DNA from: Hymenolepis diminuta
Lineage: Eukaryota > Platyhelminthes > Cestoda > Cyclophyllidea > Hymenolepididae
Direction: 5' to 3'
Length of the DNA: 64,000 nucleotides
Assembly (NCBI GenBank): GCA_900708905.1
Contig: CAADRB010000017.1
Span: 2,298,947-2,362,946, forward strand
Both the position numbers and the translations under genes were made by a program. The notes under the pieces were generated by a model, which searched no databases, had not been told where the DNA came from, and worked only from the letters and a program-made list of their open reading frames with translations. Below are positions 6,663 to 59,781 of this stretch, in pieces; position 1 is the first letter of the stretch; each line of letters begins with the position of its first letter.

Positions 6663-6682
6663 AACACACACACACACACGCA
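6663..6682. repeat. (CA)n microsatellite
   Basis: A short CA run of about nine units ending in CGCACG, in the 3' flank of the phosphatase. Confidence 0.8.
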
Positions 6683-16900: not shown

Positions 16901-19900
16901 GGGTAATCAAGTTGTGGTATCATGTATTTTAATTTTTTTGGATTTTTTAAATCACTGAGTCACTAATATTCTCATAATGAATAGAGTTTATTTTGTAAAG
17001 CGTAATGGTTCAATTTCAGGAATCTACAAGCCGATATCCCAACCAGAGGAAAGAAAAAAATACGAATTCTCGTTGTCATGGCGAAAAATCAATAAAGGTC
17101 AAACCAAATTATGTACACTATGACACAATTCATATTAGCGTACACAAATAATTTAAGAAATAAGCGTTATTTTCAGTATTCATAGGAAAAAAATTAATTT
17201 CGTCAAGGAAAAATATTTGCCAATCATTCATTATTATAGTTCCATCTTAACCGACTCCCTGATTGATGTATAAGATCATGTTCATGATATTCAAAGCTCG
17301 TTAGCCGATTTATTGATCAAGCCACCTCGATTCATTTATGCCTTGCTATAGCCAAGAGCAGGTAGATGAAGGTTGCAACGGTGTTTTAGAAATAGAAGGG
17401 ATCACTAAAGTTCACTAGCTCTGAGAACTGATGATAATATATATATTCTGCAACAGAGTAGCATTATTTACGGTTTCATAAAAGGTACTACTTTGAATTG
17501 TGAAAAGTAACTGAAATTCAAAGCAACGTAAAGATATCAAAGAGTCTTATTTCATTTGGTTTTTGGATTTTGGCAGCTCACGTTTCAAAAATTGAATGTT
17601 ATGATTCATTCCCATTATTAAAGAAAATTCTTGTCTGTGTCATTTGGTGCCTACTGAATGGTTTCTATTCGCGGTGGTCAGTCTTGCCGCTTCGATTTAT
17701 TTACTGTGTACACTGATATTCAGCACCTTACAGTCTTGAAATAGCAGAGATGAGACGACTAAAAATTTTGATTGGTGGAGCTAACGTGCCTTTATCATCT
17801 TCCTATCTCATGTGATTGGAGTTCTCAAAGCTAGGACATGTCTTAGTTCCACTAATTTCTTCTATTACACTTTGTGATTTAAATCCTTTTACCTCCCTAG
17901 ATTTTTATTTATGAGGTAGTCCTAGAAGTATGTGTCAAAATCTTACTTTTGAATGTTAGTTGGGAGAAGAAATCCTAAAACAAACTATAGAAAATATAAT
18001 CTCTACTCACCAAGAAAGCGTTATGGTCTGGTTTCCTAAAATGTCTACAAGTAGTTTAAAATCTAATTTGTTTAATTTATTGTGTCTACTTAGTTTCAGT
18101 CTTCCTGTCAGGGTTTTGTTTATTTAGAATAGGAGAAAAATCAAAATTGAAGCACGCACAAAATGTCGATAATTTGACGAATGTAAGCTAACCTATAATC
18201 AATTCAACTAAAACTCAAAATTCAAGCAATTTTTTTCTACAAATTTTAATACTTATTATCTGCTTCATTAGAAAAAATTATTTTTGAAGTTCTGCGCCTC
18301 TGTTCTGCGAAGTTGAATACAAAATAGTCGAAATGCAAAATACCACTGGTATTGTAACAATCATTTCATCGTAATCCTACTGCATAGGCGTAAACAAAAT
18401 GCTAGACAACAATAGTAACTAAAAATATTTGTTTCAAAGTGGTTTAATAGTTATATAAATGGTGGTATAAGTTGCCATTGATAATAGCCCTTTTTAAAAT
18501 AAAAAATTATTTTATATATTTTTACTCAACTATCTGTGGTGTACTCGTACTATTAAGACTAATGTACTAATAATATTTGATTTTCGAAAATTGAAATGAA
18601 TGTATATAATTCAGTTGAAACTCGAAATCCAATACTTCGAACTCATTCAAAATAGCAAAAATATGGGGACATAAATTAGTGTAAAGGATAAACATAAATA
18701 TGTCAAGATATCTATGTTGAAAAAATTGAGAAAGCTAAATGATCGCTTCTGCAATAGTCTATCTTCTAGCTGTCACAAGTAACAAATTAATACGGAACTA
18801 AAGCACCAAATAAAAGGCCTGGAATACTTTCGGCACATATTCAAAAACAGACAAATCAGAGCCTTTAAAACACAAAGATGGTTAGACGGTTCAGACCCTA
18901 ATTTCACAATTGGCTTCTTCTAGATCCCCTCCTCCACTTCATACTCTATTAAACTTGTCTATTTGTTACCGCCGACTTATATGATTTTCTATAAATCTAA
19001 GTTTAAAGGACTTGTTGCTTTGCCATTCGCAATAATAATAAATAGCAATATCATCTCACGGAACGTATGATTGCATAAATTAAACAAAAGTTATGTGAAA
19101 TTATGACTAATTAAATGATTAAATATAAGGACCAAAATAAACGACAATGAAAATTTCGGGGACGAAATAAGGGTGTAAGCTTAAAAATTAATTCAAACAA
19201 TGTCATCAGCAATGATGATGAAATTAAAAATAACTGAGGTCTATTAAAATGGAACAGTTTTTGGAGAAGAAGGAGGAGGAGGAGGAAGATTAAATCAGTG
19301 ACTTACAAGATCAGTGACAAGCTGAGGTCGGTTCTGCTTGACAATCTCGACAGCCCGAAAAACATCCACTTCAGACTGAGCCAAAATTCTCTCCATGCAG
19401 ATGCTTATCGCGCAGAAAACTCCGGCACGCGAAACTCCGTCACTAAATAAAAAAAGGGAGAAGGAAAAAATTATTTTCTTAATAAAAAATTTTTACTATA
19501 TTTCATTTTAGTTTTTACAACAAATTCTGGCCTCGCGTTGGTTCAAAAATTACCGATGTTTTAATCAATTGGGTTAAATAAACTACCAAAATTTTCATTA
19601 GACTATCAGAAGCTATGGTAGTGGCCTACTTTAAACCACGATAAGCACGTTTAGATACTACAGATAGGAGTTTTGCGTCATAAGGATTTAAAGACGTTAC
19701 TGCGGCTTCGTGGATGAGAAACCGACGTATTTTCATGAGGAATGCGAATAGAGAGTAATTCTGGAAATACATAGAGAGCCATCCTGTAATAGATACGCAC
19801 CAATTTTACTCTAATTTTTGCCTTTATCTATCCAAATCTGGTGACTTCTAAGCCAAAACATCTGCAGTAGTATAGAGAAAAAAACAATAATTCATTCTTC

Positions 19901-22900: not shown

Positions 22901-23556
22901 ATTCATTTGAAACCGTCAGGCAGTCACCACAAATATTGTGCACTTCTCATACATTGAAAATAAAATCAGCAAACTTCTGGACATATTGTTCTTTGTTTTA
23001 TAATTCAATTTAGAGTGTGACGATGCTTGCAAATGATAGGTGTGCTAACATTAAGTTCGGCGTATTTCCTCAATGCCCGATGCTTGAAAGAGTATTTGCC
23101 GCTGCTTTTTCAAAGTTCCTTTGAAGACTCTTGCATCGAATAAATACGAATATAAATTTTTCAGTTACTTCAGTTTTTTGGCACTCATGACCTGACTTCA
23201 GAAGCAAGCTTCCGCCAGTGAAATTGCTGAAATTTCGCAACACTAATATTATGATATTTAATATTTATATTTATATTTAATATAATATATTTATAATATT
23301 TAATAACATAGGGGGGGAGGTGCAAATTGTCGTGCCCACTGCATTCTCAAGTGACTTTCATTTTAACTTAAAGGTAAAAATTACACATTTTGAAATATGT
23401 AAACGGTGGAAACTGTCTGTAAAATTATATAAGAGGTTCACCATTGCTACACTTTTTGAGAATATTAAGGTGTTCCGAGTACTGCGAGGGGACAACGATG
23501 TTACTCAGCGATTCTCTCAAGTTTTAATAAAGATGTTTTCGCCCATTTTAGAAAAC

Positions 23557-23610
<54 letters not shown>

Positions 23611-23626
23611 NNNNNNNNNNNNNNNN

Positions 23627-23680
<54 letters not shown>

Positions 23681-26600
23681 AGGTATTGCGTGATCATTAT
23701 AAAAAATTCTACTCAAAGTAGTAAATTAATTTCGTATACTACGAAAAAGGCGCCAGAGAAATTTACCTTAGGATAGCTACCTTATAAAGAGGAATATATT
23801 TAGCTTTCTCATCTCTGCCGTTATAATTGTAAGCCACTGATATAAAGTCAATTTGAATTTTTAACCAGTTGAAGAGAAAACTACCAGAAGTGGCAGGATC
23901 GACCATTCTTAATTAAAAAACCAATCAATAAGCGCTGAACATCGTAAATCAGAAGACGAATCATAAAATTCGGATTTTGAAACGTGGGTCACCTATTTAG
24001 TGAATATTGCACAACCGGAATACAAACTCTAAATGGAGTAGGACCCTTTAATACCTTGAGATTGCTCTCGATATCCTTTTGATCCACATCCCCTTATCAT
24101 TAAAAAAGGTAAATTTTTTGTACTGCTGTGGCTAATAATAATAGAAGGGAATACTATATGGCAAATGCAATAAATCCTCAATGACTTCAAATGCCCTATT
24201 TCTGAATGTTTTAAATCCTCTCAAAACACCAGAGATCAAATCACCTTCCATCAATCTATTACAGATTAAGTACAGTCATTTGAATTGAGCCTATATTTCA
24301 AAGTTTAAACTTGCCTGACTTTTATTTAAATAAATACTCACAATAGAAAACATGATTATTCGCCATTTTAGATAAGGACTTATTAATACTCATCTTAGAA
24401 AAGTAAAATTCAAGCAAATTTTCTTTATTTTCACGTTGAAGGCGCTGAATCTGACCTATTCTTCTGATTAGAGTAATAGGTGATCAGTTTATAAATAAAA
24501 GTATTCAACGCCAGATCTATAATTTATTAAAAGTTTTGTGCCTTGTGAAAGACGGCGATTTAGAGAGAGAGAAACAAGGCATAGATTTGTAAATATTTTA
24601 CATTTGAAATATCGAAATGTTAAGACAATTATGTTGCTAAAAGGAACAACTTTAAAATAAATAAAGCTCGGTTTACTTTTATGGACGTTTGAACTTGAGC
24701 ACATCATAAATTCATTTACGTTTCGACTTCAATAACTGCAAAGGGTTCAACCAGCATCCTTGTCCTAAAATGCCTTTATTGCGTATGATCTTAAAGTCGC
24801 ATCGGAGACTGAGTTTGCTCATGTGAATCAAAATCGACTTATTTAGTTTTAAACAAACCACTTTGTTGTGACTTCATGTATACTTTCCCCCATCTACCTC
24901 TTTCTTTATATCTCTTTAAATATCCATACAAATCTCTAATATATATTTTTTCTATAAATACACTCCCACGCACCAGCAACAACCAAAATTTGCAGGCTGC
25001 AATACTATTCCATCTACATCCCCCTCTCTAATCTGTGACTTCTGGCTCTTCACAAAAAATGCTCGCAACTATTTCACCACCCATTCTCCAGGTGTGTGGC
25101 GACGATCGCATAAAGTTAGAAGGGTGGTAGCTCAGACAGTTTCTATTATTCAGGCTCTAAGGTATCTTGACTATTTCTAGGATTAATTAGTGGAACCTCT
25201 TTAGAGGTAGTTTGAAGAATTTATCCAATTTAAATGGTAATTCTTCATTGCTGTCAAATGCGATCAAAGCAAAGGAAGAAATATGGAAATGGAAACTTTG
25301 ACTCCGGTGTTTTATCCTGCAGACTCATTTTACGTTTTGGGCAAAGTCTGCTTTCGGAAAAAGGAGAAGAATAAAAATCGTAAACTCTGCTCTTAATGGA
25401 AAATAAAATATTTAACGTGGGGGGAAAACCAGAGCTGCATTAAAGTGCTGGTAATTAGTTGAATGAAAATGTGAATCCCATTGTTTTATTTAGAATTATT
25501 TCTTCAAAATCCTCAACAGATAAAAGTGTCAAAAATGCTTTTTTAGGGTAATGGAAAGTTATTCTAAAGCCACTTCCATGAGAAACGTGCCATCTACGCC
25601 ACTGAATGTGCACCGGTGAACATACGCGCTCGTTAATATTTACTTTTTCAAACACCCGTATTAGTATTTAAAAATGAAGGAATCGATTATCATCTGTGAT
25701 TCTTAACGTATATTTATGTGTGACATTAAATGAATAACTTCATTTAGCTGCATGGGAGGTTTGCGTTAAGGAGACGCCACTAATTTAGAAGTCAGACACT
25801 CAAGTACGTCTATATGTCTAAAAACGGGGAGATAAGAGATGAGGGAAAAGCTTTGGGGGTGTGGAGATGCATTTTCGGTTAGCGAGACTATTTCACGCTT
25901 TGGTATAAATAAGCATTGAATTCGGATAACGTCTAAGTAATTTACCACACATGCGCGACTTAAGGTTGATCTGTTCTTACTTAACAGAATTCAGTAAATT
26001 TGAACTAGTTTAACTTATTTTCGACTTAAGAAAGCAGGATGAAACAAAATGGAGAACATGGACTGAATGATTATCTTTCCCAGCATTGCAAACTTTGATA
26101 TCATTAAGTAAGAATGGGGCGAATTCAGCGTAGAGATAGCAAGCTAAAGCAGTAAGTAGTGTTCATAAAGCAACTATTAGATACTATGAAAAATTGATGA
26201 ACTACTAGACGGTCGAGAAGATGTCATAGACAGAACGGCGTGAAGAAAGCGTAAAATGGAATTAAATCGATAAGCTACCGTTGGTAAGTCCAAAGTTACT
26301 AGAGCAGAACCTTCCTTACTTTTACTGTCTGATTTTAACAAAAATATCCTAGGGAAATGAGACAAATGAATGTACCAGTGAGTTACAGGTTGAGAATTTG
26401 GAGAAAATAGTTAATAAAATATTAAACCTATTCGGTAAACAATTAAGATGATTAGGACTGATTCATATTTCAACTTACTTGCTAACAACCAGTATTGGAC
26501 TTGATGTGTCGGTCACAAAGTTCCACTCCCTGGCAAGGTAGGCCATTTGAACGATGATATCACAAGAAGTGGCGGGAGTATCTGAATCAGGCCATTTCTT

Positions 26601-29600
26601 AGTGGTCAAGAGCGTTACATCTCGGCAGACATTATCGTTCCGATTTGGCATAAACTGAAATTGTAAAAGATTAACATATATAAGTAGTCAGAAAAGCAGC
26701 ACAGAAAATTGAAGTTGACACAGTCGAATTAATACGGACTACTGGAATTGGAGCAGTGGATTTTAATTTCTGAATAGTTATTAAATGAAATGGTTGGCTG
26801 GTTGATCATATGAGGTAGTGACTCAAATTTTCTGACAAGGGCGTCAATATAATTTTGCATCTAGAATGTCAATAGATTAGTTTCGAATATTCGTCGGACA
26901 GTGATTTTAGGGCCGAAAAATCCCTATCTACACAAAGAGATATCGTAAATTGAGCTAGGAATTATTCATATCTCTCTCTTTCTTTTAAAGAAACACATAT
27001 TTTTGATTCAAAAATGCCAGTTTAATTTAGCTAACTGATTTGGAAGAATGATAATTAACTGAAATTTGTTGAAAAGAATAAGAGAAAATACCATGACATT
27101 TAATATGTGATTTGGCGGACAATTGAATTGGTACCAGTAAATCAAACTTCGACTTAACGACTCGATTCAATAAATATTTAGAGAAATATGTAACAAAATG
27201 CCGCTTTCAATCTTCGAATGATCTGAAATCGGAGAAAATTTTAGTAAGAACATTCTAAACATGCTCAAATATATTAAGAGCTCTTAAATTATTATTTCCA
27301 TGTCCATGAATCCAGCCGCAAAAAATTTACGTCCACTACTCCTCTGATTGCTCTGGACTTCAGTTAACAACTTTGTGCACATAATTCTAATAACCAAATC
27401 AATGAGATTATTTGAGTTTCCAGTATTCCCATCGAAGCTATAAAGAACTCATGCAGGCATGTTCATGGTGATAGGTCCATTTAAGTATTGTATCGAGGAT
27501 ACGGATAGAAAAAATAAGATACGAGCACGGTAGTGGCCTTTCGCTTCGTTCGACCTAATTGTCACAACCAGTCGTATCTAACGGGATTCACCAGCTTTTA
27601 ATTAATTGTCATTGCTACAAATACTGTAACTACGGTATGCATAATTAATAGTTCCAAGATCTGGTTCAAAGCAAAATATCTCAATGAAGGCTTTAAACCC
27701 TTGTTGTACGGCTGGTTTGAATTAAGTTGTCCTAAAAATATTGAATAAAGTTTTTTAAAGTCTTAGCCCTATCTACATCCACTGCATTAGAATGTAGGAA
27801 TCATAGTAATATATATATATATATATAAATATATACATATATACATATATATATATATATGGATTGAATTTAATTAAATTAACTGGCAAATGGCAAAGTT
27901 ATCTCATTAATTTCCCAAAAATATCCGAAAATTTAGTTTTATCAAAACATAGCTCTTTTTCACAAAAGACCGGATAAATCAAGGTCAAACTGCTGAAAAA
28001 TTAATTAGCTGCATTAAATTATTAAATTTCATTTTTAAGGTAGAAATTAATGCCTTCTAGGGCTAAAACAGAAATCGGAGCTCGTTTTACAAATTTCACG
28101 GTTCGACAAGCTACTTCAGAGACAAAATCTTCAATAATTCAGCTAGCTCAGCGCACTTTGAAGTCAGATAAATATCTTGAAGATTTAAAACTAAATAATT
28201 TTATATACCGATATAATTTTTCCCAAAAAAATAATTTGAATGCTGAAAAATAGTTAAATTGAATGTAATTGCTATTTTTGCTTGAACTGAAAATATTTTG
28301 GCAAAAATCAGACACAGATAATGTGAGATGCAGCATGTTAAAATTTTGAAGCTCTGAGCAGAACTCATAAAATTCCATTAGTAAAGTTCTTTTCTAGAGA
28401 TTAATTTTATTAACTTCATTTAAACAATAAAATGATCAGTTAATAACCATGTTACAGATACGAGATATAAATGATATGAAGATAGATGTAAAACTTGGCA
28501 AATTACGCTAACCAGGAAGCTAAATGTATGCAGATTCTCCCTTTGAAACTCGAGTTGAAATTTGTGCAGTTTGATTCTCGACGTTTTTAGTAAACTTGAA
28601 GAAGTTATTTCCGTTGAAGATTAGTTTTTAAGACAATTTGAAGGTTAATTGCATTCATTTCATAAATGGAGATTTGAATTCTCTGTCACTTTCATGACAC
28701 CTTTTTCATAATTCAGCTCCGCTTTGTTTAACGCAAATAGAAAGCAAAAATCTCTAGTGCTTTAAGTACTACTTAGTGGATGCTGCTAAGCTGAAAGTTA
28801 GAGCTCATTTCAAAGTTGCAATTCACAGCTTATGTTATCTAAACGCTCCATAGAATTGAAAACGGGGGTAGTATAATCACATATTTTTTAAACTTGCAAA
28901 ATTCTGAGAAAATGAGATATATGGGTTAATATTTTGTACACTTTTATCTGGTAATGAGTTCGCTAAAATACTTTGTTACTGGCTAATCGAGTAGCCAATG
29001 AATTCTTGTTATTAATTTGTATATAAAGCGAGTAATATTTTGTATTAGTTTAGGTTCAATTACCCCTGAGTTGAGATATTTCCAATGACCAGGATTATCG
29101 TTACTAAGTCGGAATCATAAAGTCCCACATTTTCTGATGTTTATCTAAACCACATTTAGAGTTTCTTCGAAATAAAAAACCATATGCATTCTTAAGATAT
29201 ATAACATAATTGTACCCTTACAACAATTGTGCAACATCTTATATGCATTACTTATCTGTCTATTTCATTCTTCATTATGCTGGGGATCATTTAGAGATAA
29301 TGAAGGTAGTTTATCCAAATTTTCCAAAATCGTAACACTTAAAACATTAAATGACGACAAGCTAAGTCCAAGGTCACATGACTGAGGTCAAGTGATTATG
29401 ATGTCCAATGTGGAATAAGTGTTTAGTCACAGGAAAACAAAGCATTCATACTTGGCGCTAAAGTTGTCAATTAAATCTAGTAGGTAGTTCGAGAGACACA
29501 TTGTACTAAGATGTGATCTAGTCGAAACGTCTTTTAGGCCTTTGCACATAGTTCTCATTTCGCTATAATTAGTATTCTTAATATTTAAGAAGAGATCATG

Positions 29601-35600: not shown

Positions 35601-38600
35601 TGTTGGATGACAGTCTAAAAAGGGGTCAAATTAGCGAACTCCATCTAAACCGTAAATTATACTGAGTATACGCCCTGTTGCTAGGTTAACAAAATAGGCG
35701 TCACTGTCTAATGTATTTAAATGTTTGATTTCCTTGAAACGCGTAAAAACTTGTTTGTGAAGTCTGTGTATAGAAAAAACTCAATAAAACTGACTTCTTT
35801 GTCAAGTAGATTGATAACCAATCAAATATTTAGATAGGAGACTAAAATTCTTATATCAAATTAATTTTAAATAAACATGACTATTTAGTATCAGTCTTAA
35901 TTCTGGGTTGACAATAACATACATCAGCTTACCAATTCCTCAGAATAACTGAAAATGTGCATTCCTATTTTATTTTTATACTTACAAATTAAGTTTGATT
36001 GCCCAATACCAAATCCATTATTATGTAACACTATTAAATAATGCAAAATATTGCCTTCCGTGGTAAGTTCCTTGTAGACATTCCTAATGAAAAATCATAT
36101 TGCCAAACCGTTTTTCATTATTAGCAATTTGCAAAAGCATATTTAATAAAAGACATTTACTTTGGTTAAAAATGGAAAAGTAGTACAGATTTTTGCATAT
36201 TTTTATTTAATGAGAAGATATTTCGGTAAGTGTAAATACTACTGAGCTTAAATAGGGCGTATAACCATTTATTAACAAAGGACTTGAAAGGTATCATATC
36301 TTTCGATAAAATAAATACTATGCCATCAGTTAGCGAAAAATAAATCAAACGTTATATTTAAATGAGAATATTTTCTACTTTACGACCAAACGAATTTAAT
36401 TCTAGACTTTGTTACCACTACTAATTTTCATTAACCAAATGTCTTTTTTCTTTCTCTTTTGCCAGTTCTGCGAACTTTAAAATCAGAAATAGAGATCAGG
36501 CTCATTAATTTTTCATAACAAAATTTAATTATTGCTGTTGACGAATTAACGTCTATAAGAAAATTTAAAAAAAAATCTGCCATGTTTAATTATTTTAAAA
36601 ACTAATTACCTCTTGGAGTTTAATAAAAGCGTAGCTTCAATTCATCTCGACTAAGCAATTAAATTGAACAAACTCTGTTTCCATTCCCGATAAAGCTATT
36701 ATCTAAATTAAAATTCAGTAAGTAATCACCAAATACAAGTGGTAGTTTGTAATTCATTCATGCATAAAACTATTTTTAAACAATTTATGAATCAAATACT
36801 CACATTGCCCAGTGAACAGGTGATTGCATAACTTAAAGGGTTTTGTCTGAATTATAAAGTTAATAGCGTTTAATAACAATTAATGCAATATTACTGAAAA
36901 AGCAGGCTGTTTTTTAGTTCTTTAAGTTGTATTGACAAAAACCATCAGCTTTTTCTATGAAGGCATGTATCGTTCCTTTATTTTAAATATCTGGAAACTT
37001 CATTATATTTTTAATAAAATTGAATACTTTTGCCATATCTGCTGATATTGGCATTTCTCTAAAACTGACAATTGAAATATGTCTATTAAACTGAATTTTG
37101 TGAATTGAAAATTGGATTTGATCAGAGTGAGTTTCTAAGCAAGACTTATTTCTTACTTTGTATCTTGCTGGATAATTTTAACTCGGGTATACTCGGAATA
37201 ACAAAAGAAATTGAGAGTTTTTGTGTACTTCAGTGGCATTTCATAATAAGGTATTTGTTAAAGATATTTGGAGAGATGTAACAACAGTCACTAATAAATT
37301 CTGAAGTTTTTGGTTTATATATGTGGTCTGCAGTAACAAAATGCATAAAATTACAAAATAAATGGTAAAAATACACAACTCCGTGACTTTAATGAAGCAT
37401 TAAGGAAAATTATTAAAACACAGAATTTCTTTATCTGAAGTTATCATGGAGCGAAATCAGTAAATTTGCATTGAGGGGACTAAGCAATTGGTAACAAATC
37501 TACTCAAAGTCTGATTTAAATTCATTTTATTAAATTTTGGTTAAAAATATAGCATAGCTCTTTCTCAAAATATCCATTTTTACTGGCAGGATTATTTGAC
37601 ATTCATCTTGTTAATCCCCCATATTTTGTGAGATCCAAACTTGTTGGCGTTAGTTTAATTGGGAGAGGACAAGTTAAAACCGATAATAGATTAAAATTTA
37701 ATATAATAATGATCAAACAACAGTTCCCTGTTTACGTTTTGATTAAAAAGTCTGATAGTTGACCCTTTATTTGGAAAAATTTGTATACGTTCATTAGATT
37801 TAAGTGAATCTCTAAATGTAAATGTTCTGCCATAATCTTTATTAATTTGGTTGACTTGGACGTTTGGCTAAAATATTAAAATATCTATTTAGTTCATCGT
37901 GTTTTATGCATTCAACATTGTCAAGGCCAAACGTATAGTGTCGGAATAATCAATAACCGTCGGCTACAAATTAGATCGATAAATGTTGATACATACGATT
38001 TAGTACAGTTTGATTTAACGCACAAGGTAATATTAATATATTTCTGTATGACATAAAATGTACATGCTAAAAATCTTAGAAATAAAGTTGCCATGGACGA
38101 CACTGTTGAAGCTGGAGCATCTTTTGCTACATTCCGAGTTCAAACTCATTTACAGCGTATTCGATAATGTTGTATTACAAACGCACTCGTTTTGCCAAAA
38201 TTTAAAGTTATAATTTTAAACGTGCATCTATTTTTATCTGTGAAATATCTACAAATATCTCAAGTCAGAAGAAGATCTAAGCGATAAGTGTCGCAATAAG
38301 AACAGCCGAAATAAATAAATGCTTATTATTAAGCTTTCAAAATTCAAAATTTCAAAATTGCGAACCATTAATATTAAACATAACTGAATAAATTTTGACT
38401 AATTCAACTGTAATAAGTTACTTACGGGGTTGGATAAGAACATTTCTGCTTTTCCTTCGATTTTCTATTCGATGTCCACCAGCGCATTCACCAACAGTCA
38501 AGGGTTTTACCAGACGATTTATGAGCTATAATAGAAGAATCAAACGCGAAAGTTTGACTAAATGGCTGGCGTCCATTTGGCTTGGATAAGAATAATTGGT

Positions 38601-41600: not shown

Positions 41601-44600
41601 CTCATTAATGATTCCATTAACAATTTTCCATCCTGCTGTGATTGGGCAGCAGTCAGAAATTCAAGAAAACAGATTTCAGCTATTCTGCCGTAGCTCCCTA
41701 CAAATTTTTGAATGACCTAACCTTCACCTTTCTCTCCGTCTGTTACCTTCGTTTTATATGCATAGAATGGAACACTGCCCCCACCTATGATTTCAAGGGA
41801 AGATCTTTCTTCTCTGTCCACTCAACAACATTCATTTTTAATTCTAGTTTCAGAATGCTGCTTACTTTTTTTCTTTTTCATTCTGCTCTTTAATATCACA
41901 TTCATGGAGACTCTTCTTTAGATTTTCAGTCCGTTTTACAGTCTTCCTCGAGTTGGCTATTAATTTTATCACCTAACGGACGATTATTTTGCCCTTCTTG
42001 ATGACGTTCTTCTTTCTGGATTCTGGTCACTTTTGACACACTGTTTCTCTGTGCTCGTTTGCCCCGCGTATGGCATTGGTGAGGTTAGTATGGGCGAAAT
42101 TAAGCAAATGGCAAATCATTTCAGAGGTAGCACTTCGTTAGAAATTTGCGGAGAGCGGAAATATTTCGGAATAAATTTTCATCAAAAATTTAATTTACAC
42201 AACTTTTTTATCCAATTTCTACTGCTTCAAGTTTTATACATTTGATGTCCAATTTTACACATTTATCATCGAGATAATTCAATGTGATTTTTTCATTTTG
42301 ATGAGTTTTAAACAGACATCATTTTCCCAAGGGTCAGACAGTCCAACCCAAAAATCCAATAAAGGAAAGGAAATTGAGCAGAAGTTGTAATTTATGTCCA
42401 GACGTTAGAAAATTCTCAAAAAATAATATTTGCATTCAGATTTTACCTTTTTCATATCTCAGCATTTCAATTTTAAGTTTTATAAACGACTTCCTTATCG
42501 AATTGGCCATTCTATTAATATAAATGAATGGTCAACCATTCCAGATTTATATTTTACTTTTCATAAGATGGTGAAAAATAGCCTTGTTTTAGCTTTAGAA
42601 AGCTCATTAAAGTTCATTCGAGGTAAACTCCATGAATGATGAATGATGATTTAACTAACACGCATACATATAATTTTTAAACCTCGTGCTTTCAATAAAT
42701 TTTTGCTTTAGCATTCTTACCATTAGTTCGGCCTCATACTTGGAAGTACAGTTCCCTGTGCCATATCCAGATCTCGGGGGCTTTTGTAGCTCTTGTACAA
42801 CTTCAGGAAGTTTGCTCAGTGGAATGCTTGTTTCTCCACCGGATCTAACCCACTCAGAGAGGACTGTGTAGATGAAGGAATACTGCTTTACATTATCAAT
42901 CATTTGAGGTCTTGAAGTGGCTACTTTTAATGCGTAGTGAGCTAAAGGGATATTGGCACCGATTTCATCCTTTCGAATGACGTCCAAAAGTTCATTTATA
43001 CAGATAAAAGTCCCTGTTCGACCGGATCCGTCTCTAGCAAATAAATAATAAGATAACAGTGCGTTTAACTTTTTTGAGTTATTGTAAACCGGTTTAAACT
43101 GGCTCCCTAAATAACAGAAGAGGTCATTTTAAGGAAAGTTTTAAAATAAAATAAGAATATTTGTTAATTGTGCTTTTGTAAATTTGAAAGGGACTCCATT
43201 ACTACCTATACGAAAACTAAATATATTGTATCGATTTTTATCAGAATGAAAAGGTTTTACTAATAGCATTGGTGGTAATTATTCTCATTACCCACAGTAA
43301 TGCAAAAGAGCTTTACAATTTTTAATTGCGCGAAGTAGCAACAGTCAGTTGAATAATAGTAAGTCGAAAAATTGTGAAAGGGATGGAATCAAAAGGGTGC
43401 ATTCTTTTGAGGCGAAACATATTTGTCAACTTTTGAAGAAAATTAGCAAGATCAAGAAACCGTTCACAAATAAAAATGAAACGTTGAGCCATTTTTGTCA
43501 TTTGAGCGGAGTAGCTAGAGAAATTTGAAAAAGGCAAATGAAATTTAAAGATAAATTAATATAAAACTCATGATATGGTTAAACGATCGATGAAAAATAA
43601 TTTAAGTTCAAGCGAGGTAGAGGTATGTCCTTTCTTTGCAAAATAGTCTGTTAATTTTAATGTATTTTTGTACCTTAAGTTTATACATTACTTGCAAATA
43701 TTTATACATAAAACACCACTCATCGGGCCAAAAAGCGCTACGGAATGCACGCACTTATTAAAGTGTTAAAACTCATATAAAACGCCCTAATAATAACTCT
43801 TTATTAAAAGGATTTGTTAGCAAATTAATTTGAATGATGGAAGAGTACCGAATGAGATATCAGTCAATAGATTACAGAGTGATACGTTAAAAACCTCAAA
43901 AAAGTGGCAGCTCATATGTTGTTGATGAGTTTCAAATATTATACACATGCGTATATATTTTGTACAAAGAAAAATCTGGATGTTTGAAAGAATAAAAGAG
44001 GTGAAAGATTAAATATTAAGAAATCAATCTGAGAAATTTTGTAGAGATAAACCAGTGAGCTAAAACTCCAAAAGAACGCAGCAATTTAAATGAATTGAAC
44101 AGACAATTTAAGCTGGAAAATATTTTGTTTTAATCAATAAATTGCCCTATTGCAAACACGTTAAGAATGAAGGCCAACTAATTTTACTCCACAGTTGAAT
44201 TAACTGGTTTAAATGAAGTAAAATTTGAAAGTAAGAAAACTTTTTGCCGACATTTTTGCCACATTTTAAAAATAATTGAAATTACCCCAATAATCTTATT
44301 TTGATTTAACAAACTCCAGTTCTTAATTTATTGAAAATAATTTGGAGCATGAAATAAGCGAAAATGATGAAATGAATAATCAAAAAATGAATTTTTAATT
44401 TAACTTCGAATACTTTATCCACTTTCCATAAGTACTGGATTTATTATGAAGTCATTATTTTATTTTATTAAATATATCTATTTTAAGATCTTATTTATTA
44501 ATGATGATTTATTTAATTTCATTACCACTTAAATTTGATCAAAATATTCGCGCAAAATTGTCAAATATCATTTGTCGCGAATTCAATGAAACAGTCATGC

Positions 44601-47600
44601 TAATTTAAGAATAAATGATGCAATAGGCATTAAAGTGTATATATTTTTAGATATACATGACTGTGAAATAAAGTCGGCCTTACGAGCAATGAACAACAAT
44701 AGGCCCGTCTCTTGTTTGTCTCCAGGCATAGAGTTTGGCGGTTAATTCAATAACTGCTCCAATTAAAGGCAGACCATTTTTATTCCATGAATCCAGTTGA
44801 AATTGCCTTATTATCCGCTTGACTTGAGGATTGTCATTCTGAAAGTTATACACAATTTTTTTAATAGACAGGAACAAACTTGCTTGATTAGTGCGTCTGC
44901 ATAATCAGTAAATTAAACACATTTGACAGTTACCTGAGAGACAGAGTGAAAGTAAAATTAATAAATTGGAGATTTTTAAGTTAGTATGTCAGTTAAAAGC
45001 TTTTCGGCTAAAAATTGCACTGGTCTTGAGTGGCACGAACTATAAGTCTTCTGGCAAATATACAACTCCATTGATTTTCATAATTTAAGCATTTTAACTA
45101 GTTCATCTTCATGATTGCAAATTTTTCAATTAAATCCATCCAAAAATTTAATTAATTTGCAGCAATAAATTGTTTTTATATTTTATCAAATTCAAAGCCA
45201 TATAAACTCCATTTCGTGACAAAAATTTTAATTTCGCAAAATATAATCAATGATTTTCATTATTTGTCAGTGAAATACTTCATTTCTTGCTAAAAAATAA
45301 TGCTAAATTAATTTATATTAATCATTTGGGAAATAGAAATATTAGATTTGAAAATGGAGGCTTAATTTATAATTATATTTAGAATTTTAAAGAATTTTAT
45401 TGACAAATTTTTTTATCTTTTAATGTTGCATTTACGACCCGCTTATCCAATGAAAACTATTTACAAATGCTTTAGATTATATTTATAAAACAAAAATCAA
45501 AACAACGCAATGAGAAATTTCCGTTTTTTATGTAAGTAACTTTGAATTTTTTCTTGAGTCCAACTCAAACTCAGCGAGAGGGAAGCGTTTCGCACTTCCG
45601 ACGTCAAAATTTTGCATTAATTCCTTTTGCCGTTTCCCTCATTGTGTAAAGTCACGCTAACCAAACCAAAATTTACTCAGGCAGAAGTTAACTCCAAATA
45701 ACCCGAATTTTATTCTTCCATACATTCAGACAAGTGGTGCTGTCCTGCAGTTTCAATATTTTTTATCTCTTTGAATAGATTTTACTGAAAAGAAGCTTCA
45801 AAGATCCCGGAAGCACGTCATGTATCGATGTTTTGTCGTTGTATTGTTAATAAGAAACGTCTAAATATGCTTCATCCAAACGTTAATTGCAAGAATGTGA
45901 GGTAAATTATTATGAAAAAAAGTAAAAAAACATATTTTAATGTTGAATTTTATCAAACTGCAACTAACCCGACTTTAAAATAAATCGATTTGCACGAACT
46001 TCAAAAACAAAAGCAGTAATTTAAAATTTTATTCCTGATGGCCAGGACATTAGAATAACTGCATCCTGATATTTTCTTAACTTGAATAAGTTATATTTTT
46101 TCCGCTTCCTTCCAATACTTCTTCGGCCTTTATTGATCACCATGACATTTCTGCAAATTATGACGCTTAATAACAAAAATGTTTAATCCTTTTTTCCTAT
46201 TCGCTACGTGTAAAATTGAAAATATTTAGAGGTTTGTTTACAATCATAAAGTTAAATCATTTTTAAAAATCGGGAAATATAAATTGGCTAAACGAAGCAA
46301 GCAGACTTAGTTTTGAAAATTTATAATTCTTTTCATCTGGAAAGCCTCTAATAATGATGATTCTTGTCAAATCTTTCTTTTGCAAAAGTTTCGCATTTTT
46401 ATTTAAAATGTCAATTTAATACTAATTTATTCATAAGTAATCAGAAGAAGTTTCACCTTATTTGACTATTGAAATTTTGAACACGTATTAGTTTAAATAT
46501 TATTCAGTAGTATTATGCAATAAAGTAGTATTTTAATCATAATACTATAATAGTTTTAGAATAATATTATTTGCTTTAATTCAACAAACCGGCACATCGA
46601 AAGAAATTTCATTATAACTTTTACTAAGAGGCATGTAAAAATAAAGTTGTACCAGTATTGAAATCAAGACTGCTATAAAGCCATGGGTGTGGTCATGGCA
46701 TCTTTGTTCTTAATGATGTCCTTCCCAGAGCATTTGATTGGGACTTGCCTTCAAAAGAAGTGCGTGAAAATTAAACTAGATGCTGATTTAACAGTGCAAA
46801 TGTTTATATTTATTTGCACTTTCTTAATTTAGATTTTCTCAATTCAACTAAAATTTTCTGATTTGAAAAATTTGACCAAGTGGAAAAATGAATCTTGAGA
46901 GTAACAAAGCCTTAATTGATTTAACCTAGCAAGATGTTCGCTCCAATGATCGTGATAGCAGAATGATTGTAGCTCACATGCTGGCAGAAATAAAACTTAT
47001 GCGCCTCATTTATAAATGATTTATAAACAAAACAAAATTACGACGGTTAAATGAATTTGTAGATAATTTTCTAACCTTAGACACCCGAAATTCTCGAATT
47101 GTATATTGAGCAGTACTGATGGCAACCCGACTTGTTACATTGATAGCACCGAATGTACAGCTGAAGGCAGGCCAGTAGCGTTCACATTGTAGCTAAATGA
47201 GGTACACAAAAATAAAAGTTTATTTTGCCCTCTCTTTCACACAAACAAAAGTTTTCCTTAAATTTTTCCCGTCGAAAGTTTATGGAAGTTATGCACGGAA
47301 TATGACTAGTATTTGCACGCTCAATTTTCGGTAAAATCTGACGGTCTCACTAATGAATAATTCACATAAGACCGAAACTCAATGTAGGAGTGAGTGCGAT
47401 AGGATCTGGAACTTTAAACAGCAGTATTTTTGAGAAACGTTCTTGTCCATCTGTGTATCTCTACATTCTCACGCTAAATCCTGAGAGAAACGCTGCTTCT
47501 TATTAAGAAATTGAATTTTTGAAAATACGGGAATACTTTAATAATTTATCTCTTTTAATATCAATAAAGTAATAAAAATATAATTTAGTCGATCAATGAT

Positions 47601-50600
47601 CTAAATCGCTGCAAAAAATGAAAATTGATCTTCAAGATTTTTTAATAAGAAACTGTAATTCATTAACAACCTGAATCCCTATTATGTGAATATTAAATAT
47701 CACTATTGTCAAAATTCAGCGGCACATTTAATCATATATTACTTTTTATTATTTAAAATCCGATGCCAAAATATTCTCTGCAATTCTAAATTAATCTTTC
47801 AGAGGAGCTCTCTCAAAATTGCGGCATTTTGCTTTGCCTCCACTTTAAGCGGAAATATACTTTGACATTTCAAAAGGCGGCCATGATTTCCTGAAGCATC
47901 ATTTCAAAGTTACGTAAAACAAAACATACACGGTACCTAAATCTGTCCACCTTTACCCCAAATTTAAGATTAAGAGTTTATATTTTGCGGTATTTTGAAA
48001 ATTTCGACAGTTTAAAAGTCATATGAAAGGAGGTATTTTGAACCGTCGATTCATAGAAGGAAGTTATATGACATTGCCCATTTAATGTCATATAAGATCT
48101 GTTTCTCTCTCAATCTTGGAAAAAAAGATCACTTGAAGTGGTGTGATGAATCAACTCGCTTAAAAAGTCGGTCAACAAGCCTTGGAAATCGTGGACAGAC
48201 ATTGATTGCAATCCGGAGAACAAATACTTAACCTTAAATTTTGAACTTGAACTATCTATTTACTAAATATTTTACAACACGAACCCAAAATTCAAATGAA
48301 GAAGGACTCCCATATTTCGTAATAACTAACTTATAATTTATTGGAGTTACCACAAACCGATTTCATCTGGTTTCATTACTAAAATTTTAATTTTTTAACC
48401 ATTGTTCTGTCTGATAAAAATTGAGTTTAAGTATTTGAAAAACTCAATCTCTTTCATGTCTACTGCGGTTCGTATAAATTAGTCCCATTGGTCATTACAA
48501 TTGCTAATTTACTGCCTAATAAATTTACAGACTGATTCAAATACGAGAGAAATTTAAAAATTAATGACAACTTTGTCGAATGTGTACTGAATGAAAGAAG
48601 CAGATTGGTGACCCAACGGAATAATTTATATTAAATTTTTAAAGTTTTTGTTGAAAATTATTCTTCTTCTCTTTCTTTCAAACATATTAATCCGAAACTT
48701 TATCTTTTTAACTATTCCACCGCTAAAACATCAAACTGAAGATTGTATTTGTATTAAATTTGAATTTAATTTAAATTCGAACATAGTTTTTTATTCTTTG
48801 TGTCTTACGTTTTATTGTCAAAAAATATTGACTTACACTTAATTAAAGATATTATTTTTAATCACAGCAAAAATTAAATTTTACAATTTTCAACTGGAGG
48901 TATCATCTGCAATAATTTTCTAGCATTTTGGATCCATTTAATTTATTTCTTCATCTTGTGTTGTAATTAATAGTGAATCGTATTATTTACAGAGTATGAA
49001 GATACGCTGATCATTTATATTTAAAGTATAGATTCACTTATTTAGGCTCAATACCAGTTATTGAAATGAAATGGTTAGCAAAAAACATTATTTTATGAAC
49101 TGTAGCTCTAGCATGAGGCAAAGCATTCATTAAAAAATCTATCAGCTCAGTACTGTTTTTGTCACTATTTTGATTTGATTGCAAGTCCGTTATCAAACAA
49201 TCACTAATAGTAATAAACAACTAGGAAATTACAAATAATAGCAGAAGTGGCATAAGAACATCGTGAGGAAACTTACGCGAGCGTGTTCAAACAAGCTTGT
49301 CACCATGACAATGCACTGACAGTTGTACTGCCAAACCATTCGCCAGAAATCAGAAATTGTATTCATATTTGGTCCCTGAGTCGCGATGTACTTTCTTTCC
49401 TGTTCTTGACCCTATAAATAGAACAAAGAAGATGCATAGAGCTTTACCAAATGAATGGGAATGCAAATACTGAAGTACTCAAAGTACTGTCATTTATTTT
49501 ATGATACAAGGTACAGCATATTTGTTTAAATTGACTGGGTATTTTATTGGTAGAATATGACAACGGAACTTACATTTCTTTTTAAATTTTAAATGATCTA
49601 TTTCTAACAATTTGCAAGTGAATCTGTAGACGATTTAAACCATAAAAAGTCAGGAAGCAGATGCAAAATTTAATTCTGCTATGATAGTGAAAGAAGACAT
49701 CATTTGACACTAAACTCTAAGCTCTCACTTAGTGCATATCTCGACCGATAAAGCATGTTTTCAAAGCGCATTTATGGAAATAATAACTGCCAAACAAGAT
49801 CTTAGAAACGGTTTACATACATAATCAAAAAATTACAAATTAAAAAGTAATTACAAATTATCTTATGTACTTTCCTGCATAAAAATTTTTAGTAAAACTG
49901 TGTGTTTTTCAGCTTACGATTCTCGTATCTTCTGATTATTCTGCAATATTCGTATTGAATTAAATATCTTTGCTCCTGTTTTACGAAGCATTTTAAAACA
50001 TTCTCCTCCAGTTTGCATTTAGAGGAACTCACTACTTAAAAGTTAATGCAAGAAACAAGTGTGCTCTTAACATTCTCAACATTCGTCCTAAAATACCTCC
50101 TTTTATCATGGCCCTACAAAGCGAAAAAATAAGTTTTTATTGCAAGTTATTGTTTATATTATAACTAAAATTTTAGAATACTAAGAGGGAGAAAAGATAA
50201 GGCAAATTTAATGTGATACAATAAAAGGGAAACTTACATCAACCCAACTTGCGTTAATGTATGTGGAATCCTCAATGCCTGGTTCTGGCTCCAAAACGAC
50301 ACAATTATCATTATCTGAATGAGTAAATAGGACAATTAAATTAGGCAGAAAATTACCAGAAAGTTATATTAATTGATTACTTAATTAAAAATCATATATG
50401 TAGAATTACACACACAAGTAAATTTGATTTGTAGCAAAATTTCGATAAAATATTAAAATAAATTTTACCATAAATGTTTCCAATTCTAATTAATATTTAA
50501 AAAAAATTAGCATTAAAATTAACTTTAAATTCATTAACTTATCTGATGTTTGTTTAATTATTTAATACCAAATTATTTAATAGTTTTTTTATATTCGAAT

Positions 50601-53600
50601 ACATATTGATTTGGTTTATGGAAGAAATCATTGAGGAACCAGTTTTTTATAAACAATATATCAAACGACCTCTCGTTCAAGTAATCATTTTAATTTCGTT
50701 AATTCATAGCTGGTGATCTTTTGCCCTCATTATGTATGCATTATGATAATACATAGTCAATGCTCTTGTTTCTTGCGCTTTGAAGTTTTTTCATACCTAA
50801 TAAATGGTTTTAAATTTCTTTTACGTACATATTACTATAACAAACTCTCCAAGATTGCCGTGACCTTGATAACATTGTTATCCTTAGCCCAATAAGGATG
50901 AGATTCAATTCTTTCTATTCCTTTAAAACGCTAGCTTCTATGAGCTACTTCTATCAAAGTTTTTCAACCACAGTGCAATTTAGTTTGTAACTTTCCTGCT
51001 GTTCTTTTCATGATCGTAATTTGATATCTTCTTCAGTCTCGTCTACCTGCTCATGGTTGTAAGAAGATGCAAACCAACCAAGGTGATATAATTAAACATT
51101 CAACTAAATCAACCCATTAAAAAATTTAAATATCACATACGACAAATTAATCACAAGTTCAGGAATCAAAATGGAGTTCTGGAAAATTTTAACATTACGT
51201 AGTGAATTATCATTCATATGAGAAAGTGAAAAAATTCAAAGCTCAAATGAAGGTAGACTTCATTTTCGACTAATGCTTCAGCCTTTACTGTATAAATTCG
51301 TTATTTTATGGGTTCAGGTGTTAATCTGTGATTAGAACCTGTAATATTTTGACAATGCAAAAGTAATAACATTAGATTTTGTAACTAAGGTCAAAAACTT
51401 TCAAATTGAAAAAAAATTGTATGGCAGTAGAGGATTTTTGAAAATTTCAACAGATTCATTAATCGAATAAAATATTATAATTGACTTAGTATTTATTGTG
51501 TTAAATTATCAAATTGGCTTGATCGGTTAAAATTAATTGACTTAATCATTTCGATCCTTAAATAGAAAAAATTTGCTTTAAATACATTCAGCCGTTTTAT
51601 TTTAATCACAACTTCTGGATTTGATTTCAAAAAATCTTATACTATTTGTCGTTGTTCGACTGGGTTTTATGACTTACCACCGGACAGGAAATGATCTTCA
51701 CTTCAGTTAATTTTAAAGTAGAAAATGCAATTTCGACAGCAGTGTATATAAAATGGGTAAAATGTCTAAAATATTTATTTAAACTCATTGTGCACCAGGC
51801 AGTATAAATGATATTTGTATTATTTTTTTAGAAATTTAAGAAAATCCTTCAAATAAAATTTAATTAAAGTTGACTGACAATTATTTCTCATGATATTTTT
51901 ATTAATCTATTGGGTGGCTGACCAGATAGTTTTTCAACAAATTTTAAGAAGTTAAAATTTTTAAAAGCACCACAAATTTTTGAGACCTCATCAATTTCGG
52001 ATATTATTAATTCAAGTGTAAAACGGTAACGGATCACGGCGAGAGCAAACTGTGAAGAGCATGAAGACGAGTGCTTGTGTTTAATTACAGTTAAAGTATG
52101 CAATATATATGATCTGATTTTGTTGTAAATCAAATGACAAACTCAATTACCTAATTTAAAATAGAAAACACTTTTCTGTTAAGCTACGTATAACAACAGC
52201 ACTATTATTTCACTTACCATCTTGTTTCATAAGACATTCCATGAGGAACTTTATAAATATTATAGCAATAATATTCGAAAGAACGTAAACTCACAAGGTA
52301 TAATATGCTGATTCTGATTTTTCTTTTCATTTTCTTCTAAGAATGCCGCCGCGCAAAATCCACCTTCGTCCATTTCGCCTTGTATTACCTTCAATATAAA
52401 AGCATTTTCGTCGCATGACTTATCGTATCGGTTTGTTATCAGGCATGTAATTCACCCATGTTTTTACTGCTAAACCTATGTTTATGATTCATAATAATGT
52501 ATTAACTGTCGAGTATTTTGCTATGGTATCGTAAATTTACAATGAGCAATTATTTGACAAAATTAAGTTAGTCAACAAAATTACATTAAACAAAAGAATG
52601 GTGGAAGCGATATCCTTCAACCATAGTTGAATGAAAAAAAGCGATTTCTCGAAAACAGAACAACCGAATTGGAGACTACATAATAAAACGTCAAAATACA
52701 TTATCTAAATTTAATTATTTGAAAAATTTTCCAAAATTGTTGATTTCAGTGAAATCTGTAAAAATTAGAGGAAAGTGCTGGGTAGCGTAGATCTCCTTAG
52801 TCATTGGAAATTAACCGGGGAATTTCGATCTCATTATCTCGGAACTGGTCCATGAATTTATTGTCATCAAAATTTCTGAAATTTATTCGTGTTTTTGAAT
52901 TACTTCTTGTACATATCATTTACATTCAGGTGAATTTAAAGAAAAAATCATTGCAATTTTGAATAAAAAGCACGTTAATTTCCTAAGGCGAAGCTAGACG
53001 CGTGACCTAAAATAAACAAATCCTTTTCATGGAGGGCTGTCTGAGAAATAGTACTAATAGAAACACAAAATTAAGGTAAATAAGTCGAAAAAATACACAT
53101 GTATGATAATGAAAAGCGTTTTCCTGGATTTACTATATTATTCTTGTATTTAAATATCTGATTTTATTTCTTAGTAGGTAGAATATCGCTAAAAAAATAA
53201 TTAAATTTTATTCACAAATGCAATAAATTTGACTGAGAAATCAAACAGGGATTTTCTTTAACTTCAACAAATAAATCAACCTAATAAAAATTGTCTGAAA
53301 ATTGTCAAATAAATAGAAAACAAAACACAGAAAAATGGAAAAGTATTTAGATGGAATCGATAGTTTACTAGATCCAACCCCTTACCGTTCCTAATAAACA
53401 TAATGGGTCAATTTTTCTCTTTTTTCTCCAATCGTGTACTCAAGTGATTTAATTTTATAAAAAATATGCCTTAAGTATTAACTCCAAATTGTGTATAAGC
53501 TGATACGCGTAGTACCATTTTTGTTTGCATAAGAAATGCTTTTCTGATTCATTAAAATTAATATCGCTCCCTAATCAAATTTGTTGTCGTGCAGCAAATT

Positions 53601-54238: not shown

Positions 54239-54357
54239 CTAGGGTCGCAAATTTTATCGCGCACAGCTCCAAAACATATCCGCAGTAAATTCATGAGGTA
54301 AATTCAACCATCATTTGGCGGTTGCGGTGGTTGTAAATCCGATCCCATGAATCTTAC

Positions 54358-59340: not shown

Positions 59341-59502
59341 GGTTCTCGACAGTCCAATGAGAAAGGTGAAATTTTGATTGGTCAGTCAGAGAATTAATCC
59401 CACCAACACGAGCCTAACTGAGCTTACCTGAGTAAAACTTACAGCCAACCCGTCCAACAATTAAAAATGTGAATATTAGTACCCACATAATAATACTTAA
59501 AA
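59341..59502 (+). promoter_or_regulatory. Proximal promoter / 5' leader of the RGK gene with two CCAAT boxes
   Basis: CCAAT lies at 59354-59358 and its inverse ATTGG at 59377-59381, 23 bases apart, about 120-150 bases before the start codon. The segment is less AT-rich than its surroundings. An in-frame TAA just upstream of the ATG shows the coding start is not further 5' in this exon. The transcription start was not identified. Because the phosphatase runs the opposite way, the region could also serve it. Confidence 0.4.
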
Positions 59503-59781
59503 ATGCCCGGTGATAGTCAAACTCTAAAACTTAGGGAAATGTTCCGTTTCCGCTCATCGCAAAGGCACAAAGAATTACGTATGCAACATTCGGATGGTTC
59601 CAATCAGACTAAAAGAACAAATGGTCCACCAGCAGTGAATACTGCTCCTGCAAATGCTCCACAACCAGTCCCTATTGTTCGAGTCCTATGTGATCCATCT
59701 TTTGAAGCTGAAGAGGAATATGAGCGAGAATTATATCGAGTTCGGAGCTTTAAAAGAACGTCAAAAGGACTCATTAGTTTG
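59503..59781 (+). CDS. RGK gene coding exon 1
   Basis: The ATG at 59503 is preceded in frame by TAA codons, so it is the likely start. The exon encodes a basic, Ser/Gln-rich N-terminus (MPGDSQTLKLREMF), a Pro/Ala-rich patch, an acidic segment FEAEEEYEREL and the start of the conserved RVRSFKRTSKG block. Such N-terminal regions in RGK proteins carry binding and phosphorylation sites; none can be assigned here with certainty. Confidence 0.87.

What the first reader, a model, noticed from the sequence alone, without database searches (positions are those of the whole stretch)
19307..52388. Complementary decay of catalytic residues in the two phosphatase domains
D1 has the loop Cys and Arg (HCSDGSGRTG) but W-N-K in place of W-P-D. 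D2 has WPD but V-S-N-D-G in place of H-C-S-x-G. In most tandem receptor PTPs, D1 is active and D2 carries the losses. Here neither domain has the full catalytic set, and each keeps the part the other lost. This predicts a receptor that binds phosphotyrosine or acts as a scaffold.
Basis: partly seen in the sequence, partly recalled or inferred. Interest (0 to 1): 0.78.

Follow-up and report, generated by a model that had tools for sequence, protein, structure and literature searches.

The report
Ancient phosphatase with two dead domains
A rat-tapeworm gene makes a double-headed tyrosine-phosphatase-like protein in which neither head has the full set of parts for the reaction; relatives in molluscs, other worms and arthropods lack the full set too, so it has probably long worked as a binding platform rather than an enzyme.

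Summary
The window matches Hymenolepis diminuta; the minus-strand gene is intact, single-copy, and larger than reported (tail exon to 13149; juxtamembrane exon from 54266). D1 has HCSDGSGRTG but W-N-K; D2 has W-P-D but VSNDGVSRAG (catalytic Cys to Ser, Arg kept).

The losses are old. Of 225 retrieved proteins, 86 (eight protostome phyla among the named ones) share the Cys-to-Ser D2 loop. None of the 86 has a complete canonical D1 set, against 134 of 139 others. Twenty-six representatives form one clade with motif columns masked (SH-aLRT 100), on the PTPRK/M/T (R2B) side; grouping with PTPRA/E or LAR is rejected. The D1 Cys is kept in 86 of 86.

"Complementary decay" is partly coincidence: the D2 Asp occurs in 5 of 86, and taeniids have WPM. 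The most conserved stretch is a linker motif, [12 protein letters not shown].

Best explanation: an ancient tandem pseudophosphatase acting as a scaffold, as proposed for PTPRU. Canonical phosphotyrosine binding by D1 is doubtful. A transmembrane exon was not established. Activity, binding and expression were not tested.

The parts
59428..59530 (-). candidate transmembrane exon (VLEFDYHRAFLSIIMWVLIFTFLIVGRVGCKFYS); weak, start uncertain
   Evidence: Only ORF on the gene strand of about 50 kb with a hydrophobic stretch ending at a phase-1 GT donor; but 40 first-order Markov simulations give a mean of 0.97 such ORFs and the plus strand has 1, so not above chance. No AG directly before 59530.
54124..54266 (-). 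juxtamembrane exon ([17 protein letters not shown]...KYEFE)
   Evidence: 100% to P0001; splice sites and phase; by eye like IRKRAMSPKQRHKRKLQ after the Lingula TM
52295..52388 (-). D1 exon with pTyr loop KNQN (canonical KNRY)
   Evidence: the database model extends this exon to 52418, unlike its relatives
50238..50314 (-). D1 exon, YINASWVD
49277..49411 (-). D1 exon, YIATQGP...FWRMVW
   Evidence: PF00102 match over cut-off at C62:2348220-2348366
47076..47192 (-). D1 exon, QCERYWP, with the backdoor Cys
   Evidence: Cys in 86 of 86 family rows
44684..44838 (-). D1 exon with WNK in place of WPD, ending VVHC(S)
   Evidence: PF00102 E 1.5e-7 for the frame holding it
42721..43033 (-). D1 exon with DGSGRTG, Q-loop MIDN (Gln lost) and D1-D2 linker
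   Evidence: PF00102 E 2.9e-9 for the frame holding it
38426..38525 (-). linker/D2 exon [32 protein letters not shown](P), family signature
   Evidence: most conserved 12-column window among 26 family rows, 0.88 against 0.44 in 36 other RPTP rows
34837..34913 (-). D2 exon ERARPYL...DYINAVFVD
34558..34689 (-). D2 exon [16 protein letters not shown]
32815..32979 (-). D2 exon [11 protein letters not shown]...GTSAFNP
26479..26654 (-). D2 exon with WPDSDTP, ending VVS(N)
   Evidence: alone below the Pfam cut-off (17.1 against 20.9 bits)
19307..19442 (-). D2 exon with (N)DGVSRAG, the Cys to Ser loop, and LVTDL
13149..13937 (-).
   Evidence: tblastn with the Echinococcus P0003 tail, 56%, E 5.7e-78; frame continues

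Best explanation
The gene encodes the tapeworm member of an ancient protostome family of tandem PTP-domain proteins that branches on the R2B (PTPRK/M/T) side of the receptor PTPs and lost the canonical catalytic set in both domains. D1 keeps its PTP loop (Cys, Arg) but lacks the general acid, the pTyr-loop Tyr and the Q-loop Gln. D2 keeps the loop Arg but has Ser for the catalytic Cys. Both domains are predicted to fold normally. It most likely works as a scaffold or decoy: the folded domains, the family-specific [12 protein letters not shown] linker and the C-terminal tail hold partner proteins without dephosphorylating them. In species whose member carries a TM helix it would do this at the membrane. 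Shown: motif losses, their spread, one clade, constraint on the domains, predicted fold. Inferred: inactivity, scaffold role, partners, membrane location in the tapeworm.
For: Exons intact and spliced; single copy in the assembly. Eighty-six of 225 retrieved proteins share the [VMIL]S D2 loop; in them D1 Cys is 86 of 86, Q-loop Gln 2 of 86, pTyr-loop Tyr 15 of 86. Complete canonical D1 set 0 of 86 against 134 of 139 others. Twenty-six hand-picked representatives form one side of a branch, SH-aLRT 100, with motif columns removed. Family plus 12 R2B rows plus a crinoid protein is one side of a branch, support 100, with four long rows left out; family with R4 (p-AU 0.00029) or LAR (4.15e-8) rejected. 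Domains more constrained than the tail against E. multilocularis: D1 227/256, D2 222/261, tail 150/255. Conservation has moved: WPD window 0.46 in family against 0.82 in others; [12 protein letters not shown] 0.88 against 0.44. Model of P0001: pLDDT 84.1, pTM 0.84, closest folds tandem RPTPs. Precedent: PTPRU, an inactive scaffold (PMC7320164, passages).
Against: No biochemical, expression or binding data. Ten of 86 rows (Tubulanus and nine molluscs) keep Cys, Arg and an Asp at the WPD position and might retain weak D1 activity; 15 of 86 keep the pTyr-loop Tyr. The 86 include near-copies (12 Trichinella rows, several oyster isoforms). dN/dS was not computed: only proteins of sister species were held. 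The PTPRK Afadin-binding residues are not conserved (G1273 is Gln, L1335 is Arg in the tapeworm), so the one R2B scaffold surface that I checked argues against that partner. Backdoor and loop Cys are also kept in the other PTPs (138 and 139 of 139), so they do not single out a redox role.
Confidence: 0.7

Rival explanations
1. Natural phosphotyrosine trap: D1 (intact loop, no general acid) or D2 (Cys to Ser, WPD and Arg kept) binds phosphotyrosine proteins tightly and shields them, as laboratory trapping mutants do.
For: D1 Cys in 86 of 86, D1 Arg in 73 and Lys in 13; D2 Arg 80 of 86. Loss of the acid and Cys to Ser are the changes used to make trapping mutants (recalled).
Against: The pTyr-loop Tyr, which packs against the pTyr ring (PMC7320164), is lost from D1 in the tapeworm (KNQN) and from D2 (KSRN). 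PTPRU, with its own changed loops, bound no phosphate or pTyr in crystal soaks (PMC7320164).
Confidence: 0.12
2. A weak or atypical phosphatase: D1 still hydrolyses some substrate slowly, or a non-protein substrate, using another acid.
For: D1 loop kept; 10 of 86 rows still have Cys, Arg and Asp; PTPRQ with a WPE loop is reported as a phosphoinositide phosphatase (mentioned in PMC7320164).
Against: In the tapeworm acid, Tyr and Gln are all changed; [quoted passage not shown]
Confidence: 0.1
3. Redox switch: the loop Cys and backdoor Cys form a reversible disulphide that changes the scaffold's shape.
For: Both Cys kept in 86 of 86 although catalysis-specific residues are gone; PTPRU forms such a disulphide (PMC7320164).
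Against: Both are kept in the other PTPs too (loop 139 of 139, backdoor 138 of 139), so retention may be structural.
Confidence: 0.15
4. A decaying gene on its way to loss in a parasite.
For: Long cestode stem branch, 1.05 changes per column.
Against: Open frame with regular splice sites to the stop; 85-89% identity of D1 and D2 to Echinococcus against 59% in the tail; the same kinds of loss in free-living phyla.
Confidence: 0.03

Closest known systems
PTPRU (vertebrate R2B receptor pseudophosphatase)
   Same: Tandem PTP domains, changed pTyr loop and WPD loop, loop Cys and backdoor Cys kept; reported as inactive and proposed as a scaffold (PMC7320164, passages). R2B side of the tree (PTPRU's place is from the paper).
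   Different: PTPRU has WPE and GSRQ; here WNK and KNQN, Q-loop Gln also lost, D2 has Cys to Ser, and no large ectodomain was found. PTPRU's MAM-Ig-FN3 ectodomain is recalled. No PTPRU row was in the trees, so PTPRU itself was not tested as sister.
PTPRK / PTPRM / PTPRT (R2B)
   Same: D1-D2 phylogeny groups with them; by eye the arthropod family D2 resembles hemichordate R2B D2 (WPMGH...VP).
   Different: All 12 R2B rows used have KNR[YF], WPD, HCSAG.GRTG and Q in D1 and Cys in D2.
Drosophila Ptp36E
   Same: Suspected fly member of this family (recalled). A spider paper uses that name for a spider gene (PMC10099834, passages); [quoted passage not shown]
   Different: No Drosophila sequence was retrieved, so membership is untested.
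PTPRA / PTPRE (R4) and LAR/PTPRS (R2A)
   Same: Best PDB sequence and fold matches; a short ectodomain, as in R4 (recalled), is seen by eye in Owenia and Lingula members.
   Different: Active D1 motifs in the rows used; grouping with either rejected by AU test.

Membership tests
Pfam Y_phosphatase (PF00102) | profile score over the curated cut-off | tested here: met
   Frames 44680-44904 (31.8 bits) and 42655-43128 (37.3 bits) over the cut-off of 20.9; the D2 WPD exon alone below it at 17.1; five places of the window's stretch over cut-off in the genome scan
catalytically competent classical PTP (D1) | KNR[YF], WPD Asp, CX5R and Q-loop Gln together | tested here: not met
   KNQN, WNK, HCSDGSGR, MIDN: only CX5R met
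catalytically competent classical PTP (D2) | CX5R Cys | tested here: not met
   VSNDGVSR: Ser at the Cys position
tandem-domain PTP | two PTP folds in D1-D2 arrangement | tested here: met
   AlphaFold2 model of P0001, pTM 0.84; RPTP alpha 6uzt_A TM 0.80/0.85
receptor PTP | transmembrane helix before D1 | tested here: inconclusive
   Candidate exon 59530-59428 at chance level. Of 78 family rows (of 86) with 19 or more residues upstream, 19 have a hydrophobic 19-mer of 1.8 or more; P0001 and P0002 do not
R2B (PTPRK/M/T/U) | D1-D2 phylogeny with R2B | tested here: met
   Family + 12 R2B rows + crinoid P0228 one side of a branch, support 100; R4 and LAR groupings rejected; groups were named after a first tree was seen, and four long rows were left out
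R2B (PTPRK/M/T/U) | MAM-Ig-FN3 ectodomain | tested here: inconclusive
   No Pfam match in three minus frames of window 50200-64000 or of L011 and L012; L013 and L014 not scanned; the scan also missed the two known D1 exons in that stretch, so it is insensitive to short exons. Filed as R2B-side, not as an R2B receptor
R2B (PTPRK/U type) | Afadin-binding residues G1273 and L1335 of PTPRK | tested here: not met
   Gln and Arg in the tapeworm; L1335 position is Arg or Lys in 13 of 15 family rows shown, as in the PTPRM-like row (residues from PMC9640194)
PTPRU-like pseudophosphatase | no catalytic activity in assay | not testable with these tools
   needs recombinant protein
Ptp36E family | clade with the Drosophila gene | not tested
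   no Drosophila row among the 120 listed in each

The most novel reading that the evidence does not exclude
The protostome branch of the R2B lineage replaced catalysis, before the split of spiralians and ecdysozoans, with a remodelled D2 ligand pocket framed by the family-specific [16 protein letters not shown] and PPERxRPYL motifs and a Ser-for-Cys loop. That would make R2B-type signalling older than chordates, with a non-enzymatic, possibly ligand- or redox-gated scaffold as its protostome form and perhaps its ancestral one.
Probability: 0.25. Interest if true: 0.75.

Novelty: new variant of a known kind. Interest (0 to 1): 0.6.

Why it matters
Vertebrates have one R2B receptor reported to have a dead D1 (PTPRU). 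A clade spread over eight protostome phyla with both domains degenerate suggests that a non-enzymatic tandem PTP protein can be kept for hundreds of millions of years, and gives dozens of natural variants with which to ask what dead domains bind. It also bears on the statement that the R2B family first appears in chordates (PMC6440744, passage): relatives on the R2B side exist in protostomes and hemichordates. Many members are named in databases as phosphatase epsilon, kappa or mu, which is probably misleading about activity.

Tried and rejected
Early exon guesses dropped: 31109-30944 (YFP), 37889 (NRY) and the NRY at 52433 look PTP-like by eye but are not in the homologous protein. An [16 protein letters not shown] piece of the first guess, with the true 38525-38426 and 32979-32815 exons missing, was in the queries, so those queries were partly wrong in D2; one search uses the corrected exons.

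Afadin recruitment as in PTPRK was considered and found unsupported. The residue numbers there were set by the CEE motif; the D2 contexts fit, but the control residue Y917 fell on another Tyr, so the numbering is trusted for D2 only. Redox gating is kept only as a rival. Transmembrane exon: proposed, then shown to be at chance level by the control. Alternative D1 exons: none. tRNA and Rfam scans of the window: nothing. Pfam scans of 1-13140 (three minus frames, two plus frames): nothing.

Literature: the listings of five searches aimed at this clade showed no description of it; searches for Ptp36E, PTPRU, phosphatome and Hatzihristidis gave the papers quoted. Of papers I saw listings and, for seven, passages found by terms; no whole text or named section. 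PMC4138107 gave only reference-list passages. Hatzihristidis et al. 2015 and Chen et al. 2017, which may name fly or invertebrate members, were not read, so novelty is limited to those searches.

Counts: homolog lists are cut at 120 rows (of 3593, 1951 and 7927 hits). The 225 are the distinct rows of the first two lists. The 86 rests on the rule that D2 has [VMIL] then Ser at the His-Cys columns; two of the 139 others have neither His nor Cys there and are probably members that the rule missed. The 26 family and 36 other rows were picked by hand. The tree left out four long rows (P0236, P0058, P0227, P0231); with them in, the crinoid and hemichordate rows still lie next to the family. Trematodes did not appear in the lists; the cut by rank and length means absence is not shown.
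Full report
What the window holds. The gene is on the minus strand. Its joined juxtamembrane, D1, linker and D2 regions are identical to database protein P0001, named Hymenolepis diminuta, and the window lies in an unnamed 170.6 Mb assembly, so the species is taken as the rat tapeworm. Fifteen exons are listed, the first of which is doubtful. From 54266 to the stop at 13149 the frame is open and all 13 introns have GT donors and AG acceptors. The database model stops early at 19298 and misses a 262-residue tail exon at 13937-13149, found with the Echinococcus multilocularis tail (56% identity, E 5.7e-78). D2 gives high-identity matches only on the window's contig; the best elsewhere are at most 41% identical, so the gene is single-copy in this assembly.

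The observation. D1 has HCSDGSGRTG and WNKNG; D2 has WPDSDTP and VSNDGVSRAG. The D2 loop aligns without a gap, so the catalytic Cys is Ser and the Arg is kept. No alternative exon in the window restores the D1 WPD loop. Nine of 16 other PTP stretches read from the same genome carry W-P-D and HCxxGxGR in the same stretch, so the losses are specific to this gene rather than to the genome.

How old the losses are. The first homolog search listed seven cestode proteins on top (Hymenolepis, Echinococcus, Taenia; 67-84% identity to the query); it and the second also listed proteins of a nemertean, annelids, a brachiopod, a bryozoan, molluscs, Macrostomum, arthropods and Trichinella/Trichuris. Of the 225 distinct proteins in these two lists, 86 carry Ser at the D2 Cys position after Val, Met, Ile or Leu. 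Those with a species name are all protostomes, eight phyla by my own knowledge of the names; some have no name. In these 86: D1 Cys 86; D1 Arg 73 and Lys 13; pTyr-loop Tyr 15 and Asn 47; Q-loop Gln 2; Asp at the WPD position 23. None has the complete canonical D1 set, against 134 of 139 others. Ten keep Cys, Arg and Asp together, Tubulanus and nine molluscs by name, so weak activity there is not excluded. The 86 hold near-copies.

The complementary pattern. The D2 Asp is present in 5 of 86: three Hymenolepis rows, the bryozoan and one unnamed row. The four taeniid rows have WPM and others have WPN, WPS, WPQ, WPL, WPA and more. So the D2 WPD is a local feature, not a kept half of an active site. 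What the family keeps is the D1 loop and the D2 Ser-for-Cys loop.

Family tree. With all motif columns removed, 26 hand-picked representatives form one side of a branch (SH-aLRT 100) in two trees (53 and 62 rows). Cestodes pair with Macrostomum (96 and 97), and arthropods with Trichinella/Trichuris (99). With four long rows left out, family plus 12 R2B rows plus a crinoid protein is one side of a branch with support 100. Holding the family with R4 (p-AU 0.00029) or with LAR (4.15e-8) is rejected; family with R2B alone is not (p 0.657). These groups were named after the first trees were seen. The 12 R2B rows, fish, mammal, shark and hemichordate by name, have intact D1 motifs. PMC6440744 states that the R2B family first appears in chordates, citing Chen et al. 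2017 (passage); the hemichordate rows and the protostome family suggest an older origin of this side of the tree.

Constraint. Between H. diminuta and E. multilocularis D1 is identical at 227 of 256 aligned positions, D2 at 222 of 261 and the tail at 150 of 255. Among 26 family and 36 other rows, the mean majority share of the WPD window is 0.82 in others and 0.46 in the family, while [12 protein letters not shown] is 0.44 in others and 0.88 in the family, its most conserved window; the D1 PTP-loop window is 0.93 and 0.78. Constraint has moved from the general-acid loop to the linker and the start of D2.

How it probably works. The nearest studied case is PTPRU, whose D1 has WPE and GSRQ, is inactive in the authors' assays, showed no bound ligand in soaked crystals, binds PTPRK substrates and is proposed as a scaffold (PMC7320164, passages). 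By analogy I propose a scaffold or decoy. The surface by which PTPRK D2 binds Afadin is not kept (G1273 is Gln, L1335 is Arg, residues from PMC9640194), so partners are unknown. Loop and backdoor Cys are kept in 86 of 86, but also in 139 and 138 of 139 others, so a redox role is possible, not shown.

Limits. No transmembrane exon is established: the only candidate is at the chance level of 0.97 per simulated stretch. Relatives do have a hydrophobic segment there in 19 of 78 rows with enough upstream sequence. No Pfam ectodomain domain was found upstream, but that scan also missed two known D1 exons, so it is insensitive to short exons. dN/dS, expression and activity were not tested. Drosophila Ptp36E is suspected to belong but was not retrieved.

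Verdict. Observation confirmed; interpretation partly supported; new variant of a known kind (tandem RPTP-like pseudophosphatase), with an unexpectedly old and wide spread.

Noticed in passing
L020 (G000:C104:913000-922999, minus): A second divergent tandem PTP in the same genome: KNRC pTyr loop, one loop VHCEDGK, another LCGDGATRSG. Possibly another pseudophosphatase.
   Followed up: no
window 13149-13937, 19298-19306 and 52389-52418: The database H. diminuta model reads into an intron after LVTDL and misses the 262-aa tail exon; it also has an [10 protein letters not shown] insert that its relatives lack.
   Followed up: yes
window 23557-23680: CTAT tandem repeat, 31 copies, in an intron; an AT repeat at 27809-27860.
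   Followed up: no
mollusc rows among P0122-P0147, P0161, P0219: Most mollusc members went another way in D1: W of WPD replaced by F (FND, FHD, FSD) and loop HCRCGGG[KR][TS][AS], with the Arg replaced by Lys in 13 rows; the Octopus row and a similar unnamed row keep W (WEMDD).
   Followed up: partly
P0236 (Ixodes scapularis), P0227 and P0231 (bivalves): Long-branched tandem PTPs with near-canonical D1 that fall between R2B and LAR/R4 in the tree; possible active protostome relatives.
   Followed up: no
tail exon 13149-13937: Blocks shared with Echinococcus, such as [13 protein letters not shown] and the C-terminal [13 protein letters not shown], in an otherwise diverged tail; possible binding motifs.
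   Followed up: no
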